A DNA stretch of 64,000 nt from Psychrobium sp. MM17-31 (GTDB taxonomy: Bacteria > Pseudomonadota > Gammaproteobacteria > Enterobacterales > Psychrobiaceae), in assembly GCF_022347785.1 (NCBI RefSeq), contig NZ_JAKRGA010000001.1:186001-250000 (forward strand). The letters are read 5' to 3'. The position numbers and the translations under genes are program-made. The notes beneath the pieces were generated by a model. That model made no database searches, was not told where the DNA came from, and saw nothing but the letters and a program-made list of their open reading frames with translations. This document shows positions 36,102-42,582 of the stretch, piece by piece (the first letter of the stretch is position 1; every line of letters starts with the position of its first letter).

Positions 36102-36130
36102 TGGACATATTATGTCACATCGTATACAAC
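36102..36130 (+). promoter_or_regulatory. Candidate promoter of the lipoprotein-DUF350 operon
   Basis: TGGACA (36102-36107) as -35, 17-nt spacer, TACAAC (36125-36130) as -10; an overlapping TATACA is an alternative. Both boxes are imperfect. The -35 overlaps the operator palindrome at 36104-36116, the same layout as at 39932. Confidence 0.45.
36104..36116. promoter_or_regulatory. Operator palindrome GACATATTATGTC (copy 1)
   Basis: Perfect 6-bp arms GACATA/TATGTC around one T. Found again at 39934-39946 (identical) and 39970-39982 (central A). I saw no other copy in the window. It overlaps a -35-like box upstream of the lipoprotein gene, so binding would be expected to repress. Confidence 0.7.
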
Positions 36131-36216
36131 TAATGTTGCACACGCTGCATCACCTATTTCAGTTAAATGCAGTGTGAAACTGAATGAATCGTTACCATAT
36201 CATTGAAGAGGTTCAT

Positions 36217-37182
36217 ATGGCAGGTAAGCCTTTAAAAATAATGTTAATGCTGGTGTTTTTCGCATTGCTCGGTGGGTGTTCAGATCCCCTCGATGATGCC
36301 ATCGCCAATTTAACACAAACCAATAATAATAAACTTAAGACGTTAGAACGACAGCTTGATGATAAGCAAGTACGCAATGCCGTCTTAATTAGTGAATATG
36401 GCAAGCTCCTGGAGCAATCTCGTCCAGAGCTAGCGCCATTGATAAAAAACCTGGTGCGAGATGCCACGACTCAAGGCGCAATGTATCAAGGCTTGGCCAA
36501 CCGAGTTAAAGATTCGCAGGTTGCTAGTAACTTTGTTACCAAAGACGAGCAAGCGCAAGAGATGACTAATCTCGGTGAAGCACTTAACCCCGTGTTATTT
36601 AATGACGCGTTAAGTGATGTAGTGAACGTGCTCGCCGATATGTCTAATGGTGCATTGGCTCGCGTTAATGCACTTAGTCAAGCCCAAAGCCAGCAAGCCA
36701 ATGGCAGTGAAGACTTCGGTGTAGGTTCTCAGCTAGTAGGCAATCCTAATTACGGCACTTGGAACACCAATAGCAATGGCATGTCATTCTGGGAATGGTA
36801 TGGCATGTATGCGCTAATTTCTAATATCACCAGTCCTATTTCTTATGATCGCTGGGGTCGTTACCGCGGCTACAGCTATTACAACGATTACGGGCGATAC
36901 CGCTACAGCTCACCAAAGCAGCGTAAAAAGCACCGCGATGTTTGGAATAAAACCTCGAAGAAATTTAGTACTGGCTCGCACTACTCTACCCCTTACTCGA
37001 AATCACGCGTGGGTAGCAGCAGATTATCACGTCAAAGTACCCAAGCTAAAACTGCTGCAGGTAAAGGCTTTAGCAGCAACAATCGCTTTAAGCAGACGCG
37101 TTCGCGCTCTAGCTATGCAAATAATTCAAGTTTTAGAAATAGCCGCAGCACAACTTCTCGTGGCTCACGCCGCGGCAAATAA
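36217..37182 (+). CDS. Lipoprotein with low-complexity Tyr/Arg/Ser C-terminus, 321 aa
   Basis: Start chosen at ATG 36217 (MAGKPLKIMLMLVF), behind GAAGAGG, because the lipobox LLGGC then lies at residue 21; the longer frame from 36184 would bury it. The mature N-terminal half (~25-180) is helical (LTQTNNNKLKTLERQLDDKQV). A segment around WEWYGMYALISNI may contact the membrane. The last ~110 residues are basic and low-complexity (RYRGYSYYNDYGRYRYSS, then many Ser/Arg). Heads a cluster with DUF350, PspA and a K+ channel, and is 14 bp from the DUF350 gene. Function unknown; possibly the counterpart of the lipoprotein-like YjfM in E. coli, by position only. Confidence 0.75.
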   Translation: MAGKPLKIMLMLVFFALLGGCSDPLDDAIANLTQTNNNKLKTLERQLDDKQVRNAVLISEYGKLLEQSRPELAPLIKNLVRDATTQGAMYQGLANRVKDSQVASNFVTKDEQAQEMTNLGEALNPVLFNDALSDVVNVLADMSNGALARVNALSQAQSQQANGSEDFGVGSQLVGNPNYGTWNTNSNGMSFWEWYGMYALISNITSPISYDRWGRYRGYSYYNDYGRYRYSSPKQRKKHRDVWNKTSKKFSTGSHYSTPYSKSRVGSSRLSRQSTQAKTAAGKGFSSNNRFKQTRSRSSYANNSSFRNSRSTTSRGSRRGK

Positions 37183-37196
37183 TAGGATTGATAACC

Positions 37197-38099
37197 ATGG
37201 AACAATTACAACTATTAATAAATCACGAACCTAACCTGCTGGTTATTTTGGCCATCGATTTAACCATTGCGATTGTTTTGCTTTACGCAATGCGATTTAT
37301 TTCAGGGCTTTGGGCGGGTGTTGATACAACCGACGAATTAGCAAGCAAAGACAACTTCGCTTTTGGTATTTCACTAGCGGGTAGTTTATTAGCCTTAGCC
37401 ATCGTGTTAACAGGTGCTATTACTGGTGAAGCTGGAACTTCATTCGCACAAGAAGCCATTGGCATGACGATCTACGGTGTGTTTGGGTTGATCTTAATTA
37501 AACTTGGCCGCATCGCCCACGATAAATTTGCACTATCTGGATTAGATAAAGTTGCTCACATTAAAGAAGGTAATGTTAGCGTAGCTATAATTGACGCTGC
37601 CGCGTTAGTAGCAACGGCATTAATTATCCGTGCAACCTTACTATGGGCACATGATTTAACCGTCGATACATTTATCGCTATTTTCAGCGGTTTTGTTATC
37701 GCTCAAGCATTATTGATTGCCGTAACGCGCCTGCGTGAGTCTGCATATCGTAAAAACAATCAAGGTAGCCAGTTCCAAGATGCAATTGCCGGTGGCCAAA
37801 TTGCCCTATCGATTCGCCACTCAGGTTTCTTAATTGCAACAGGCTTTACCCTAACTGCGGCGTCAAACTTCCTTGTTTATGTACCACAAGCTTATGTGGA
37901 AAATGCGCTAGGTTGGTTATTGTTTGGCGTGGTCATGGTCGCTTTACTGTATGTGTTAGTGCCACTTGTAAAAAAATTAGTACTCTCGCGTATTAACCTT
38001 ACGGAAGAAGTCGATCATCAACACAACATTGGTGTTGCATCACTAGAATTTGTAATCAGCATTGCTGTTGCCCTAATCCTAATGGCGTTAATGTCATAA
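37197..38099 (+). CDS. DUF350 family membrane protein (YjfL-like, duplicated)
   Basis: 300 aa with about eight membrane helices arranged as two similar four-helix units, each a DUF350 domain: FAFGISLAGSLLALAIVLTGAI in the first half and IALSIRHSGFLIATGFTLTAAS in the second. Start taken at ATG 37197, with AGGA 9 nt upstream, rather than TTG 37188. DUF350 proteins are found with PspA homologues (E. coli YjfL beside YjfJ). Inner membrane. Function unknown; proposed roles in envelope stress are inferred from neighbours. A strong hairpin follows at 38109. Confidence 0.88.
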   Translation: MEQLQLLINHEPNLLVILAIDLTIAIVLLYAMRFISGLWAGVDTTDELASKDNFAFGISLAGSLLALAIVLTGAITGEAGTSFAQEAIGMTIYGVFGLILIKLGRIAHDKFALSGLDKVAHIKEGNVSVAIIDAAALVATALIIRATLLWAHDLTVDTFIAIFSGFVIAQALLIAVTRLRESAYRKNNQGSQFQDAIAGGQIALSIRHSGFLIATGFTLTAASNFLVYVPQAYVENALGWLLFGVVMVALLYVLVPLVKKLVLSRINLTEEVDHQHNIGVASLEFVISIAVALILMALMS

Positions 38100-38108
38100 T
38101 TATCTTCT

Positions 38109-38144
38109 CGGCTAGGTGAGCCCTCACCTAGCCGTTTATTGTTT
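38109..38144 (+). terminator. Strong hairpin between DUF350 gene and aminopropyltransferase gene
   Basis: CGGCTAGGTGAG (38109-38120) and CTCACCTAGCCG (38123-38134) form a perfect 12-bp stem followed by TTTATTGTTT. It looks like a rho-independent terminator, 10 nt after the DUF350 stop and only 23 nt before the next start. It would limit, or gate by readthrough, expression of the downstream gene. Confidence 0.8.
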
Positions 38145-38156
38145 ACAGGCTTTCCA

Positions 38157-39884
38157 TTGAACTCTTCGGTTACTCCAAAACCTTCAGCCAGACTCTTTGA
38201 TGACGTTTTACTCATCACTATCATGGCAGTACTCGCCGGCTGTGGCTTAATTTACGAATATTTACTCTCTCATTATGCAGGCCGCGTGATTGGCGCCGTT
38301 GAATCTGCAATTTACACCATGATCGGCATTATGATTGTGTCGATGGGCTTAGGCGCGTTTGCCGCGCGAAAGGTCAAATGTGCCTTTAGTGGCTTTGCAT
38401 GGCTTGAACTTACCATTGCCTTGCTTGGTTGTAGTGCGATTCTAGTCATTTCTAGCGCCATTGCGGCGGTACAACTACTGCCGCAAATTATTAGCGAAAC
38501 CTTTAATTTACCGCCTGATGCGGAAATTCGCGGCGGTTTATTCGGCGTGCTGCACGATATTACTCACTACAGTCCTTATTTTTTTGGTGCTGTGTTGGGC
38601 TTATTTATTGGCATGGAAATTCCGCTGATTGCCCGGATCCGCGAATTTGTTCATAAACAACATCTAGTGCATAACGCAGGTACGATTTACGGCGCGGATT
38701 ATATTGGCGCAGGCATTGGCGCGGCCATTTGGATAACTATTATGTTATCACTAGAAATCAATCTAAGTGCCAGCATTACCGCTAGTGCGAACCTGATTGC
38801 TGGCGTGGTATTTTGGCTGCGTTATAAAGAGCACATTCGCTTTAAATACTTATTGTTGGTTGGTCACGTGCTATGTGCGGTGCTCGTTGCGGCAATCTTT
38901 AGTTACGGCGGTCAATGGGCAAAGTCATTTAATAACCTGTTATACCTCGATAAGGTGGCCTATCACCAACAAACCCGTTATGCCCAAGTAGTACTCACCG
39001 AGCGTCAGTTACCAAACCACAACTACCCAATGGTCAGTTTATACCTTAATGGCCGACTTCAATTTGCCCAAGACGATGAGCACATTTATCACAAATTCTT
39101 AGTCTACCCTGCGATGGCCGCATCAGCACGCCATGACAATATTTTAATTATTGGCGGCGGTGACGGACTTGGATTACGCGATGTTTTAGCTTGGTCACCA
39201 AAGAAAGTCACCTTGATGGATCTCGATAGTGAAGTAGTGGATTTGTTTAAAAACCCTCACAATTATCTTGACGACGGACTAGCCGACAATATTACGCGCT
39301 TAAATAATAATGCCCTTAACGATGAGCGCGTGCGACTTATTCACGCTGATGCCTATAACGGAACTGATCAGCTTATTACCGATATGGAACGTTTTGACAC
39401 TATCATTGTCGACCTACCAGATCCATCGCATCCAGATCTCAACAAGCTTTATAGCCGCACGTTTTATTTAAAATTAAAACAGCTACTATCAAATGATGGC
39501 GTGATGGTCGTGCAATCAACATCGCCATTTCACGCCAAAAAAGCCTTTATGAGTATTGCTAAAACGGTGAAGTCTGCACAATTTAAAGACGTTGAGCAAT
39601 ATCATTTTAACGTGCCGAGTTTTGGCCAATGGGGCTGGACGATTGCCACGCAAAGCGGCTTGTCACCGCGCGCGCGACTAGCACAGCAGAAAACGCTGCA
39701 ACCGTTTGAAACTTGGTTAACACCGCAGCTGATTCAAGCGAGCTTTGAGTTTTCGCAAGGTTTTTATCAACAAATGGATGAAATAAAGGTCAATGAACTT
39801 GGCAGTTTTATACTTTATCGCTACCATCAACAGGCGTGGGAATCGCAGCAAGGAAACAACAATAGTTGGTATCAGAATGAGTAA
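38157..39884 (+). CDS. Membrane-bound polyamine aminopropyltransferase-like protein
   Basis: About 575 aa. The N-terminal half has seven or so membrane helices (residues ~10-250). The C-terminal half is a spermidine synthase fold: LNGRLQFAQDDEHIYHKFL substrate gate, the nucleotide-binding loop IIGGGDGLGLRD (~residue 325), an acidic residue pair in LMDLDSEVV and the catalytic-loop equivalent VDLPDPSHP (canonical SpeE has D-x-x-DP). It would transfer aminopropyl groups or act as another SAM-dependent enzyme at the inner membrane. No ATG fits the N-terminus; TTG at 38157 has AGG 7 nt upstream, and TTG 38139 is an alternative. It follows a terminator-like hairpin. Fused membrane forms of this kind are known beside PspA-type genes. 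Confidence 0.82.
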   Translation: MNSSVTPKPSARLFDDVLLITIMAVLAGCGLIYEYLLSHYAGRVIGAVESAIYTMIGIMIVSMGLGAFAARKVKCAFSGFAWLELTIALLGCSAILVISSAIAAVQLLPQIISETFNLPPDAEIRGGLFGVLHDITHYSPYFFGAVLGLFIGMEIPLIARIREFVHKQHLVHNAGTIYGADYIGAGIGAAIWITIMLSLEINLSASITASANLIAGVVFWLRYKEHIRFKYLLLVGHVLCAVLVAAIFSYGGQWAKSFNNLLYLDKVAYHQQTRYAQVVLTERQLPNHNYPMVSLYLNGRLQFAQDDEHIYHKFLVYPAMAASARHDNILIIGGGDGLGLRDVLAWSPKKVTLMDLDSEVVDLFKNPHNYLDDGLADNITRLNNNALNDERVRLIHADAYNGTDQLITDMERFDTIIVDLPDPSHPDLNKLYSRTFYLKLKQLLSNDGVMVVQSTSPFHAKKAFMSIAKTVKSAQFKDVEQYHFNVPSFGQWGWTIATQSGLSPRARLAQQKTLQPFETWLTPQLIQASFEFSQGFYQQMDEIKVNELGSFILYRYHQQAWESQQGNNNSWYQNE

Positions 39885-39931
39885 CATCTGCAGCTTTTGA
39901 TCATCGTTGAAAAAAGATTGAAATAATTGTT

Positions 39932-39960
39932 TGACATATTATGTCTAACAAACTAAATTA
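39932..39960 (+). promoter_or_regulatory. Sigma-70 promoter of the DUF2170-PspA operon
   Basis: Perfect -35 TTGACA (39932-39937), 17-nt spacer, TAAATT (39955-39960) as -10. The -35 overlaps operator copy 2, and operator copy 3 begins 10 nt after the -10, around the expected transcription start. Confidence 0.75.
39934..39946. promoter_or_regulatory. Operator palindrome GACATATTATGTC (copy 2)
   Basis: Identical to the copy at 36104-36116, and overlapping the -35 box of the DUF2170-PspA promoter. Centre-to-centre distance to copy 3 is 36 bp. Confidence 0.75.
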
Positions 39961-39969
39961 CACACTCAA

Positions 39970-39982
39970 GACATAATATGTC
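39970..39982. promoter_or_regulatory. Operator palindrome GACATAATATGTC (copy 3)
   Basis: Perfect arms GACATA/TATGTC with a central A. Lies between the -10 and the ribosome site (AAAGGAAAGG), so together with copy 2 it brackets the promoter. Confidence 0.75.
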
Positions 39983-39997: not shown

Positions 39998-40411
39998 ATG
40001 AATATACATCTAATTGCTAATCACTTAAACGAACTCGCTGATAACAGCGATACTGGTTTTACATTCGACAGCCTACCAATTGCTGGTGAAGTTGATGTAC
40101 TACAAGTAACTATCAAGGGACGTGAAGAAATTCCAATCTTTGTTTCTGTCACAGACGATCAAATTCTTTGTATTGCTTATCTTTGGGGTGAAGAAGAAGT
40201 TAAGCAAGACACTCGCGGAGAAATGCTTGAAGCCATGGTGGAAATGAACATTCCAATGCCACTGTCTTCATTCTCAAAAATCGACGACAAATACGTCATT
40301 TTTGGTGCCCTTTCGGTAAATTCATCGCTACACGATGTTGAGCATGAGCTCAGTGTGTTAAGTGATAACTCACTTGAAGTCATTAACGAAATGGCCGACT
40401 ACTTAGTCTAA
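39998..40411 (+). CDS. DUF2170 family protein (YjfI-like)
   Basis: 137-aa soluble acidic protein matching the DUF2170 build: MNIHLIANHLNELADNS, a beta-rich middle with REEIPIFVSVTDDQILCI, and FGALSVNSSLHDVEHELSVLSDNSLEVI at the end. In E. coli the homologue YjfI precedes the PspA paralogue YjfJ. First gene of a five-gene operon (DUF2170-PspA-DUF2491-RHH-channel) behind a strong promoter with two operators. Biochemical role unknown. Confidence 0.88.
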   Translation: MNIHLIANHLNELADNSDTGFTFDSLPIAGEVDVLQVTIKGREEIPIFVSVTDDQILCIAYLWGEEEVKQDTRGEMLEAMVEMNIPMPLSSFSKIDDKYVIFGALSVNSSLHDVEHELSVLSDNSLEVINEMADYLV

Positions 40412-40439: not shown

Positions 40440-41129
40440 ATGAGTATTTTTAGTAAAATTATTACTGCCATCCGCGGCGGTGCTAGTGAAGCAGGTGAAG
40501 CGATTGTTGATGCAAACGCAACTCGAATCTTTGCTCAAGAAATCAGAGATGCAGAAAATCACCTAACTAAAGCTAAGCGCGACCTAACAGGTATTCTTGC
40601 TAAGCAAATGCAAGCGCAACGTGAATTAGATCGCATCAACCGCTCTATCACAGAGCACGAAGGTTACGCGACGCAAGCACTAGGCCAAGGCAACGAAGCC
40701 CTAGCGCTTGAAGTGGCAGAAAAAATCGCCGCACTAGAAGTTGAGCTTGGCGAGCAACAAGCGTCATTTGACAGCTACGAAAAAGGCGCACAACGCCTTA
40801 AAGAGCTTGTTAAAGGCACTGAGCGTCAATTAGCCGATTACCAACGTCAACTAAGCATGGTAAAGACGACTGAAAGCGTACAAAAAGCGACTGCTGCCAT
40901 TACTGATAATTTCAGCAACAGCAACTCTAAGTTATTAAATGCTAAGCAATCATTAGAGCGTATTAAAGCTAAGCAACAAGACTTTGACGATCGCATGCAA
41001 GCAGCTGACGACTTAGCAGCAGAAGGCAGTGACCAGTCACTAAAAGACAAGCTAAGTGCCGCTGGCATCGGCGAGCAACAAACTAGCGCCAACAGTGTGT
41101 TAGATCGCATTAAAGCAAAACAGGGGTAA
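40440..41129 (+). CDS. PspA/IM30 family protein (YjfJ-like)
   Basis: 229 aa, ESCRT-III-related helical membrane-remodelling protein. Opens with MSIFSKIITAIRGGASEAGEA, the amphipathic membrane-binding helix. Long charged coiled-coil helices follow (residues ~25-190: QEIRDAENHLTKAKRDLTGIL; LEVAEKIAALEVELGEQQASF) with a short tail helix. The neighbours DUF2170 and DUF2491 place it in the YjfJ rather than the classical PspA branch; there is no PspB, PspC or PspF nearby. It probably coats and protects the inner membrane under stress. Confidence 0.92.
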   Translation: MSIFSKIITAIRGGASEAGEAIVDANATRIFAQEIRDAENHLTKAKRDLTGILAKQMQAQRELDRINRSITEHEGYATQALGQGNEALALEVAEKIAALEVELGEQQASFDSYEKGAQRLKELVKGTERQLADYQRQLSMVKTTESVQKATAAITDNFSNSNSKLLNAKQSLERIKAKQQDFDDRMQAADDLAAEGSDQSLKDKLSAAGIGEQQTSANSVLDRIKAKQG

Positions 41130-41133
41130 TACT

Positions 41134-41772
41134 ATGGGATTTTTTGGCAAACTCTTTGGTTCATCGAACGACGACAAACCAAAACGCACCCTCGAAAAGC
41201 CTGAACAGCTTCAGGTGGGTGACATCATTACCCTAGATGATAGTTTTGCCTTGCCTGCACTTTTGCGCGGGCAGTCCCTAGAAATAAAACAGATTAATAC
41301 CTACGAATACGAGTTCAGCAAGTCCGTTGAGTGGGTATTACAAGGCTCGACTGATGACATTTTATTTTTATCAGTCGAAAATGACGATGTACAAACCCTA
41401 GTATTTTCCCTTAAAATAAGCCGCGATATCGTCGGTCAAATATTTGATTTAGACGAATTTTCACAGCTTTTCGACGAGCCAGGCCGCGCCGTCCTTAACG
41501 CAAAAGAACTTCCGCCAGAGTACAGCCAATGGGCTGGACAAGTGTATCGCCAGTGTGAATTTGCCCAATTTGGCTATTTCCACGACAGAGTTGATCACCG
41601 CTCGCAGCGTCTAAACGAAGACCAAGGCGACTCTTTTGAACGTTATAGCGCTGAGTCTGACGATGAGAAATACGGCGTCGAAGCTGAGGTTTACGAAGGT
41701 GGTGAAACCGATGTTGTTCTAACAGTACAACGTCCAATTACCGATATTAGGCAATACTGGCCGAAGAGTTGA
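41134..41772 (+). CDS. DUF2491 family protein (YjfK-like)
   Basis: 212 aa, soluble, beta-rich. Recognised by the family-like MGFFGKLFGSS opening and LQVGDIITLDDSFALPALLRGQSLEIKQINTYEY, then VLQGSTDDILFLSVENDD and a C-terminal VLTVQRPITDIRQYWP. It starts 4 nt after the PspA gene, so translation is coupled. In E. coli YjfK follows YjfJ. Function unknown; the tight pairing suggests a PspA partner. Confidence 0.88.
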   Translation: MGFFGKLFGSSNDDKPKRTLEKPEQLQVGDIITLDDSFALPALLRGQSLEIKQINTYEYEFSKSVEWVLQGSTDDILFLSVENDDVQTLVFSLKISRDIVGQIFDLDEFSQLFDEPGRAVLNAKELPPEYSQWAGQVYRQCEFAQFGYFHDRVDHRSQRLNEDQGDSFERYSAESDDEKYGVEAEVYEGGETDVVLTVQRPITDIRQYWPKS

Positions 41773-41805: not shown

Positions 41806-42150
41806 ATGAGCGATAAAAAGACCGAAAACGACGATAAACTCCCCCCTAAATGGCGTGGTGCAACAAAAGCAATCAAAGCGACTCAGGTCGCTTTTGATAT
41901 GGATGAAGCTATCCAATATGAAATCAGACGCCAAGCCCTTGAAGATGGTATTAGCCCATCAGATCAAATCAGACATATTCTAGGCCTGCCATGCTCTCGC
42001 AGGCCAAAGCGCCCTCGCCTGACGGTTTCGTTAAGTCCTGATGATTATCAATTACTCGCTGATAAATACGATTTGTCACCAGAGCAGCAGCTAGAGATTA
42101 AAAAAATTGTGGTTGAAGAGTTAACCCAATTTGCAAAACCAAAGAAATAA
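41806..42150 (+). CDS. Tandem ribbon-helix-helix-like protein, candidate regulator of the cluster
   Basis: 114 aa. Two ribbon-helix-helix-shaped units are visible. Unit 1 has strand TQVAFDM (26-32), helix DEAIQYEIRRQALEDG and helix SPSDQIRHILGL (50-61). Unit 2 has strand RLTVSLS (71-77), helix PDDYQLLADKYDL and helix SPEQQLEIKKIVVEEL (91-106). A basic linker SRRPKRPR joins them. Ribbon-helix-helix proteins insert a beta-strand into the major groove of short palindromes. Three GACATA(A/T)TATGTC palindromes lie in the promoters of this same cluster, so I infer that this is their ligand and an autoregulator. No homologue was checked; an accessory non-DNA role remains possible. Confidence 0.6.
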   Translation: MSDKKTENDDKLPPKWRGATKAIKATQVAFDMDEAIQYEIRRQALEDGISPSDQIRHILGLPCSRRPKRPRLTVSLSPDDYQLLADKYDLSPEQQLEIKKIVVEELTQFAKPKK

Positions 42151-42159
42151 GGAAGTTGT

Positions 42160-42582
42160 ATGGTTGAGTTACATCACACAGACGAATATGGCGTCAAAAA
42201 TTACAAAACACGTTATTTAGCCCTCATGGGCGTGGCGGTTATTTATTTAATCATCGGTATCGGTGCTTACTTGCTGCATTATTTTGAAGGGCAAAACGCC
42301 GACGCCAATATCACTTCTTACGGTCAAGCCTTCTGGGTCTTGATTATGGCTAGTTCTACCATCGGATTTGGTGATTTTTACCCAACAACGCCAGGTGGTT
42401 ATGTCATAGTAACTATCATGTTTTATATTGGTGTGGGTATGATGGGTTATATCGGTGCGTTGATAGCGACTAAAATTATGGGTTTTTCCGACACCAACGT
42501 GAAGAACCGTGAATTACGACGTCAAAACGCTGAAATTATCGAAGAGTTACGCGCGCTGCGTAAAGATATCGAAAACAAATAA
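42160..42582 (+). CDS. Two-TM potassium channel, KcsA type
   Basis: 140 aa. TM1 at ~19-42, pore helix ~55-65, selectivity filter TIGFGD (residues 67-72), TM2 ~80-107 and a short C-terminal coiled coil (~112-139, NRELRRQNAEIIEELRALRK). GFG in place of GYG is common and compatible with K+ selectivity. There is no RCK domain. Last gene of the DUF2170-PspA operon, 9 bp after the ribbon-helix-helix gene. A channel beside PspA suggests control of membrane potential or ion leak during envelope stress (inference). Confidence 0.9.
   Translation: MVELHHTDEYGVKNYKTRYLALMGVAVIYLIIGIGAYLLHYFEGQNADANITSYGQAFWVLIMASSTIGFGDFYPTTPGGYVIVTIMFYIGVGMMGYIGALIATKIMGFSDTNVKNRELRRQNAEIIEELRALRKDIENK

What the first reader, a model, noticed from the sequence alone, without database searches (positions are those of the whole stretch)
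36104..39982. Three copies of GACATA(A/T)TATGTC mark both promoters of a PspA/DUF350 cluster
The same perfect palindrome occurs at 36104-36116, 39934-39946 and 39970-39982 and, as far as I can see, nowhere else in the window. At 39932 it overlaps a perfect TTGACA -35, and the third copy sits at the expected transcription start. At 36102 it overlaps a TGGACA -35. The two operons (lipoprotein-DUF350 and DUF2170-PspA-DUF2491-RHH-channel) therefore look like one repressed regulon.
Basis: partly seen in the sequence, partly recalled or inferred. Interest (0 to 1): 0.78.

Follow-up and report, generated by a model that had tools for sequence, protein, structure and literature searches.

The report
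Hidden switch of a membrane-stress regulon
A short mirror-image DNA sequence marks the start of a bacterial membrane-repair gene cluster and of several other membrane-protection genes, and it occurs almost only in genomes that carry one small, uncharacterised protein encoded in that cluster, so the two look like the lock and key of an undescribed stress response.

Summary
GACATA(A/T)TATGTC lies exactly three times in the window (36104-36116, 39933-39945 [reader one base off], 39970-39982) and six times in the 4.17-Mb genome. It reaches beyond this cluster. Upstream of DUF2170 a copy recurs in 79 of 79 named-genome loci found through the cluster's 114-aa tandem ribbon-helix-helix (RHH) candidate: 59 exact, 14 with one mismatch, 6 with two; 64 of 79 have a pair. 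Across 388 genomes of the order, 80 of 114 RHH+ genomes have two or more exact sites against 4 of 274 RHH-. Exact sites also precede htpX, nhaA, yqiJ, nfeD, SPFH, AIM24 and other pspA genes. In a follow-up test the site (up to 1 mismatch) lies upstream of htpX in 12 of 12 RHH+ and 0 of 13 RHH- genomes. At the PspA operon one copy overlaps the -35 and one lies just past the expected start; at htpX it mostly sits a fixed 19 bp after CTTGA. Best reading: operator of an autoregulating tandem-RHH repressor of an envelope-stress regulon. The operon, with an occasional RHH gene, is in print (PMC11237479); my searches found no operator or regulon. Binding, sign and signal are inferred.

The parts
36104..36116 (.). 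operator-like palindrome GACATATTATGTC upstream of the lipoprotein-DUF350 genes
   Evidence: exact match; exact site upstream of the orthologous lipoprotein gene in 68 of 82 rows, 1 mismatch in 4, none in 10
36217..37182 (+). small lipoprotein gene (lipobox-like LLGGCS; start taken at the ATG after GAAGAGG)
   Evidence: ORF; no Pfam family over cut-off; start and lipobox are my reading
37197..38099 (+). DUF350 (YjfL-like) membrane protein gene
   Evidence: PF03994, E 2.8e-35; start choice is my reading
38109..38134 (+). terminator-like hairpin after DUF350
   Evidence: 11-pair stem then T-rich tail, (consensus match only)
38139..39884 (+). polyamine aminopropyltransferase gene between the two promoters
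   Evidence: NF002956, 590 bits over a cut-off of 472
39931..39936 (+). -35-like hexamer TTGACA overlapping the distal operator
   Evidence: TT before the distal palindrome in 100 percent of the 58 loci with two exact sites
39933..39945 (.). distal operator-like palindrome GACATATTATGTC
   Evidence: exact match
39954..39959 (+). -10-like hexamer TAAATT
   Evidence: TAAATT-like column consensus, in most rows preceded by TGn, in the 58 loci
39970..39982 (.). proximal operator-like palindrome GACATAATATGTC, just past the expected transcription start
   Evidence: exact match; spacing of the exact pair 34-39 in 58 of 58 loci that have one
39998..40411 (+). DUF2170 (YjfI/BacA-like) gene
   Evidence: PF09938, E 1.3e-38
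40440..41129 (+). PspA/IM30-family (YjfJ-like) gene
   Evidence: PF04012, E 9.4e-38
41134..41772 (+). DUF4178-like gene (reader: DUF2491)
   Evidence: no Pfam hit itself; relative in L333 25.6 bits, DUF4178 cut-off 25
41806..42150 (+). tandem ribbon-helix-helix protein, candidate repressor reading the palindrome
   Evidence: no Pfam, NCBIfam or PDB sequence relative over cut-off; AlphaFold2 gives beta-alpha-alpha twice; presence tracks the motif
42160..42582 (+). small ion channel gene
   Evidence: PF07885, E 3.5e-07

Best explanation
GACATA-W-TATGTC is the operator of the tandem-RHH protein encoded at 41806-42150. The protein binds the dyad and represses its own operon (DUF2170-PspA-DUF4178-RHH-channel), the lipoprotein-DUF350 operon, and a set of membrane-protection genes elsewhere (yqiJ with a band-7/flotillin gene, nhaA and an M17 aminopeptidase in this genome; htpX, nfeD, SPFH, AIM24 and further pspA genes in relatives). 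At the PspA operon one operator covers the -35 and one lies just past +1, so RNA polymerase is blocked until a membrane-stress signal releases the repressor. Shown: the sites, their conservation, their link to the RHH gene, their position on promoter-like sequence. Inferred: DNA binding, repression, release by envelope stress. Unknown: the signal and what relieves repression.
For: Motif and RHH gene travel together: 2+ exact sites in 80 of 114 RHH+ and 4 of 274 RHH- genomes; among genomes with DUF2170, 80 of 114 with RHH against 2 of 46 without, one of the two (G096) having a contig end before the RHH position. RHH-less DUF2170 operons: 0 of 15 have a site within 1 mismatch in 400 bp upstream, 1 of 15 within 2. 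Outside the order 7 of 11 RHH+ genomes have exact sites, 0 of 10 RHH- genomes that I picked, mostly at the RHH operon itself. De novo count: GACATA is the half-site in 59 of 79 upstream regions, the next best in 6. Follow-up htpX test 12 of 12 against 0 of 13. The same targets recur in several bacterial families. A yqiJ-flotillin pair, separate with a site here, stands downstream of RHH in L163, L334 and L335 (names by my reading). Positions on the -35, past +1 and 19 bp after CTTGA at htpX. Q27 and R71 of the two predicted strands are invariant in 31 of 31 site-bearing rows.
Against: Binding was not measured. hhalign finds no sequence repeat between the halves. RHH genes without a site near them: L326, L329, L341, L342; in L171 the RHH gene is split from DUF2170. 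G294, G382 and G083 have 2 exact sites without a detectable RHH. Only 26 of 56 listed target sites form TTGACA and 11 more lie 19 bp after CTTGA; the other 19 are not placed on a recognised promoter element. At classical pspA genes the site is 147-159 bp from the gene start. 26 of 131 sites have no recurring target. Site and RHH gene could both follow a third, unscreened factor.
Confidence: 0.85

Rival explanations
1. Another, unlinked regulator reads the palindrome and the RHH protein is a passenger or binds elsewhere.
For: G294, G382 and G083 carry 2 exact sites without a detectable RHH gene; RHH genes in L326, L329, L341 and L342 have no site near them; other regulators were not screened for the same distribution.
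Against: The one transcription-factor candidate among the cluster's genes tracks the site through 388 genomes and through 11 genomes of other orders, and DUF2170 operons without RHH lack the site.
Confidence: 0.07
2. The RHH protein binds the site but works mainly as an activator, for instance at classical pspA promoters.
For: At five small-protein/pspA promoters the site lies 147-154 bp from the gene start, where an upstream activator could sit.
Against: At the DUF2170 promoter it overlaps the -35 and lies past +1; 26 of 56 listed target sites form TTGACA and 11 htpX sites lie where a -10 would be, the usual places for a repressor.
Confidence: 0.07
3. The palindrome is only conserved promoter core sequence (TTGACA and neighbours), not an operator.
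For: TTGACA is contained in the distal site of all 58 loci with two exact sites.
Against: The same 13 bases also lie past +1 and after CTTGA in htpX promoters, while RHH-less genomes such as G010 and G018 keep CTTGAAA upstream of htpX without it.
Confidence: 0.01

Closest known systems
PSP operon with CesT/Tir-like YjfI, PspA (YjfJ), DUF350, spermidine synthase, DUF4178 and, in some cases, RHH (Ravi et al. 2024, PMC11237479; passages seen)
   Same: Gene content and the remark that the final gene can be an RHH transcription factor; band-7/flotillin and YqiJ named as partners in other PspA operons.
   Different: The words operator, palindrom- and HtpX do not occur in its main text; here the operator, its co-occurrence with RHH and a wider regulon are added.
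Enterobacterial pspABC-PspF system
   Same: PspA-centred envelope-stress response with its own regulator alongside.
   Different: PspF is an NtrC-type AAA+ enhancer-binding protein (PMC11237479; sigma-54 dependence and PspA-PspF inhibition recalled); here sigma-70-like and CTTGA promoters appear blocked by a small RHH protein.
Tandem or single-chain RHH proteins (permuted single-chain Arc 1u9p; F relaxosome 9f0x, whose matched chain is TraY by recall)
   Same: Two beta-alpha-alpha units in one chain in the predicted models; both listed by Foldseek.
   Different: Not significant by E-value (0.68 at best); no sequence relative over cut-off.
bac operon of Pseudomonas aeruginosa (BacA = DUF2170, PMC10948618; passages seen)
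   Same: DUF2170-PspA pair; BacA suggested to act negatively on its operon.
   Different: A sigma-54 site is proposed at its promoter; the word ribbon does not occur in the main text.
Cpx and heat-shock control of htpX in E. coli (recalled, no call)
   Same: htpX as an envelope-stress target.
   Different: CpxR boxes are direct repeats of GTAAA (recalled); the palindrome here is different.

Membership tests
Ribbon-helix-helix transcription factors | beta-alpha-alpha unit pairing into an RHH fold | tested here: inconclusive
   secondary structure beta-alpha-alpha twice in both models, pLDDT 71.7 and 74.5; no significant Foldseek hit; no Pfam family over cut-off; such a gene is called RHH in PMC11237479
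Ribbon-helix-helix transcription factors | short palindromic operator, often repeated, at its own promoter | tested here: met
   palindrome within 2 mismatches at its own operon in 79 of 79 named-genome loci, two copies in 64 of 79; binding itself not testable
Autoregulated repressor regulon | same site at own and unlinked promoters, found with the regulator and not without it | tested here: met
   exceptions G083, G294, G382 and L326, L329 are told in the report
Autoregulated repressor regulon | loss of the regulator raises target expression | not testable with these tools
   needs an experiment
PspF-controlled psp operon | AAA+ activator gene alongside and an activator-dependent promoter | tested here: not met
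   no AAA+ activator among the eight cluster genes; the DUF2170 promoter has TTGACA-17-TAAATT
YjfI-YjfJ type PSP operon | DUF2170 next to a PspA/IM30 protein | tested here: met
   PF09938 and PF04012

The most novel reading that the evidence does not exclude
A PSP-type membrane-stress circuit that does without PspF and sigma-54: a tandem-RHH repressor holds down PspA, flotillin, HtpX, NhaA, NfeD/SPFH and AIM24 genes through operators laid over sigma-70 and sigma-32 promoter elements, and one of the proteins of its own operon (PspA, DUF2170 or DUF4178) senses the membrane and strips the repressor off, a partner switch like PspA-PspF but with opposite sign.
Probability: 0.4. Interest if true: 0.85.

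Novelty: new variant of a known kind. Interest (0 to 1): 0.74.

Why it matters
How the PspA-DUF2170-polyamine operons are controlled is open in the papers I saw. A near-invariant 13-bp operator, a candidate regulator and a target list turn this into a testable regulon in at least 14 bacterial families (the anonymous family labels with an exact or 1-mismatch site at the DUF2170 promoter: f1, f2, f6, f7, f8, f13, f16, f25, f63, f79, f91, f104, f152, f206). It also groups PspA, flotillin, HtpX, NhaA, NfeD and AIM24 proteins as one membrane-protection programme, which helps to assign functions to several unknown partners.

Tried and rejected
Sites with 2 mismatches genome-wide: 64 against 60 for the reversed pattern in this genome, so dropped. 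Sequence search of the RHH protein in Pfam, NCBIfam and PDB gave nothing over cut-off. Test for an internal sequence repeat by hhalign: negative. Operator variants (Psychromonas GACATATAATGNC and GACATTAAATGTC, f102 CCCATAATATGTC, f8 GACATTTTATGTC) were seen, but covariation with the RHH sequence was not tested. The conserved-promoter-core explanation is rejected because the same bases lie on the -35, past +1 and after CTTGA at htpX. Literature: searches for the motif letters (one unrelated plant paper), DUF2170 with PspA (2 papers), RHH with PspA and Shewanella (one listing, not opened), htpX/nhaA/PspA/Shewanella (none), regulon/RHH/flotillin, DUF2170/DUF350, yjfJ/yqiK/htpX (none), DUF350/RHH; some searches returned only PMC11237479. 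Regulon databases such as RegPrecise could not be searched. Rows dropped: L132 and L133 from the lipoprotein count, because their contigs begin inside that gene and read the wrong stretch (corrected). L163 has only 9 bp upstream of DUF2170 and is untestable. Named-genome loci L046-L125 and G-handle loci L126-L185 partly come from the same genomes, so the 130 rows are not independent; counts by genome are those. In the htpX test 5 of 30 genomes gave no usable htpX locus and were dropped: G000, G041, G152 (RHH+) and G031, G106 (RHH-).

Full report
Observation. The palindrome GACATA(A/T)TATGTC occurs exactly three times in the window, at 36104-36116, 39933-39945 and 39970-39982. 100 dinucleotide shuffles gave a mean of 0.00 and a largest count of 0. 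The genome of 4.17 Mb has six exact copies; the pattern read backwards has none. The promoter-like site TTGACA-17-TAAATT (39931-39959) scores highest of 18 in the region, with the distal palindrome over the -35 and the proximal one just past the expected start.

Surroundings. A terminator-like hairpin follows DUF350. This arrangement, with the remark that the final gene is in some cases an RHH transcription factor, is in Ravi et al. 2024 (PMC11237479; I saw passages). The words operator, palindrom- and HtpX do not occur in its main text.

The candidate regulator. AlphaFold2 models of the 114-residue protein (alignment of 72 rows) and of an Oceanimonas homologue (25 rows) show beta-alpha-alpha twice, with mean pLDDT 71.7 and 74.5. 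Foldseek returns no significant match. For the second model permuted single-chain Arc is rank 1 (E 0.68, TM 0.41). The halves show no sequence repeat by hhalign. In 31 site-bearing homologues Q27 of the first strand and R71 of the second are invariant; of three site-less homologues compared, L341 and L342 have K at position 71 while L326 keeps R.

Conservation at the operon. Of 80 named-genome loci found with the RHH alignment (the best 80 of 159 kept by the tool), 79 include DUF2170. Within 300 bp upstream, 59 have an exact site, 14 (the Oceanimonas-Zobellella-Oceanisphaera group) one mismatch and 6 (Psychromonas) two; 64 of 79 have two sites within 2 mismatches and 15 have one. 58 loci have two exact sites, 34-39 bp apart. 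Counting all possible 6+W+6 palindromes de novo, GACATA is found in 59 of the 79 regions and the next best half-site in 6. In those 58 loci TT always precedes the distal site, and a TAAATT-like hexamer follows 16 bp after the TTGACA, mostly with TGn before it. Of 42 RHH+ loci from G genomes 31 are exact, 3 have one mismatch, 7 two, and L163 cannot be tested. Upstream of the lipoprotein gene 68 of 82 rows are exact, 4 have one mismatch and 10 have none (two mis-scanned rows dropped).

Link to the RHH gene. In the 388 genomes of the order searched, 80 of 114 RHH+ genomes (RHH) have two or more exact sites against 4 of 274 RHH- genomes; with one or more it is 90 of 114 against 23 of 274; the reversed pattern occurs once in each of 8 genomes. 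24 RHH+ genomes have no exact site: 22 are of the Psychromonas family (f12), whose fetched members have sites with two changes, and the other two are G249 (Oceanisphaera group, one mismatch) and G312 (GACATTTTATGTC pair). All 114 RHH+ genomes also have DUF2170; of the 46 genomes with DUF2170 but no RHH, 7 have one or more exact sites and 2 have two or more: G096, where the contig ends before the RHH position, and G294, where no RHH was found. In 15 RHH-less DUF2170 operons no site within one mismatch lies in the 400 bp upstream, and one (L182) has a site with two. These 15 include the second, RHH-less DUF2170 operons of two genomes (L172, L173) that also carry the RHH operon, and L170 of G023, whose RHH gene lies elsewhere.

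Outside the order. A class-wide scan of 369 genomes found 11 RHH+ genomes outside the order. Seven of the 11 have exact sites; 0 of 10 RHH- genomes that I picked from the list do. In L323, L324, L325, L330, L332 and L333 exact sites lie upstream of DUF2170 in the RHH operon; in L331 (G571) the copy there has one mismatch and the exact pair lies before another DUF2170 gene (L309). RHH identity to the window protein is 36-55 percent in these loci. Two genomes of family f102 have CCCATAATATGTC and CCCATATTATGTC there. Two genomes have nothing within 2 mismatches near RHH: G675 (L326, a free-standing RHH gene) and G625 (L329, RHH with lipoprotein and DUF350 but no DUF2170 in reach). These are real exceptions.

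Wider regulon. The loci fetched for this were chosen by me from exact-site lists, mostly of RHH+ genomes, and leave out many operon sites on purpose, so proportions mean little. Among 131 distinct exact sites in them, 31 precede DUF2170 and 2 the lipoprotein gene; of the rest 19 precede htpX (six families: f1, f6, f13, f16, f23, f25), 10 nhaA, 6 yqiJ, 5 nfeD, 4 SPFH/band-7, 4 AIM24, 4 M16 peptidase, 8 other pspA genes or the small gene before them, 4 a 98-aa protein, 3 a Tim44-like protein, 3 a bPH_5 protein, 2 a 120-aa protein; 26 have no recurring target (two sites before one gene count twice; Pfam names, except Tim44-like, which is my reading). In the window's genome the three other exact sites precede yqiJ and a band-7 gene, nhaA, and an M17 aminopeptidase gene. 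In L335, L334 and L163 a YqiJ-like and a flotillin-like gene stand downstream of RHH on the same strand (directly in L335, after one gene in L334, after a gap of about 0.4 kb in L163, names by my reading), which supports their membership independently.

Follow-up test at htpX. I named 30 genomes before looking at their htpX promoters; 25 gave a usable htpX locus. The site lies upstream of htpX in 12 of 12 RHH+ genomes (10 exact, 2 with one mismatch) and in 0 of 13 RHH- genomes even at two mismatches. Eight of the 12 are of family f6 and two of f16, where other genomes had already shown htpX sites; two are of f2. The 13 include two of genus g25 (other members of which are RHH+ with the site) and four more of families f6 and f25. 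Exactly 19 bases before the palindrome CTTGA begins in 11 of 12 earlier htpX sites and in 10 of these 12. RHH- genomes such as G010 have CTTGAAA followed by CCCATAT without the palindrome. That CTTGAAA...CCCAT is a sigma-32-type promoter is recalled. The window's own genome has no full HtpX match.

Mechanism. Sites over the -35, just past +1 and at a -10 are the usual layout of a repressor, and the candidate regulator lies in its own target operon. Of 56 listed target sites elsewhere, 26 form TTGACA and 11 lie 19 bp after CTTGA; 19 are not placed on a recognised element, so the layout is not uniform. I infer repression by the tandem-RHH protein, relieved by a membrane-stress signal; neither is shown. 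By analogy with PspA-PspF (recalled), and because BacA (DUF2170) is suggested to act negatively on its operon (PMC10948618, passages), a partner encoded in the operon may control the RHH protein; this is speculation.

Verdict. The parts are of known kinds; the operator, its pairing with this RHH family and the wider regulon were in none of what my searches returned.

Noticed in passing
L204, L206, L216, L221, L225, L228: Classical pspA genes, or the small secreted-protein gene before them, in Thalassotalea-like genomes carry an exact palindrome 147-159 bp from the gene start; in some a TTGGC-like sigma-54 element (by recall) lies nearer the gene. The site may work differently there.
   Followed up: partly
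L345 and G366:C7: In f8 genomes a second exact pair lies upstream of another PspA paralogue followed by a rhomboid-like gene (L345, my reading; the G366 pair was seen only as coordinates).
   Followed up: partly
L005:1490-1540: Beside the exact nhaA site lies an imperfect second copy (TCGACATAATGTTTAGACATATTATGTCGAC on the minus strand).
   Followed up: no
L007, L008, L009, L013, L014: One-mismatch sites of the window's genome, several in TTGACAT contexts, upstream of a carbonic anhydrase-like gene (L014), a periplasmic coiled-coil gene (L009) and others (my reading); not tested for conservation.
   Followed up: no
L326, L341, L342: RHH relatives outside DUF2170 operons without a site near them; in L341 and L342 the strand-2 arginine is lysine.
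   Followed up: partly
L171, L170, L294: In G023 the RHH and DUF4178 genes are split from DUF2170-PspA; the DUF2170 promoter has no site while another PspA promoter (L294) has an exact pair.
   Followed up: partly
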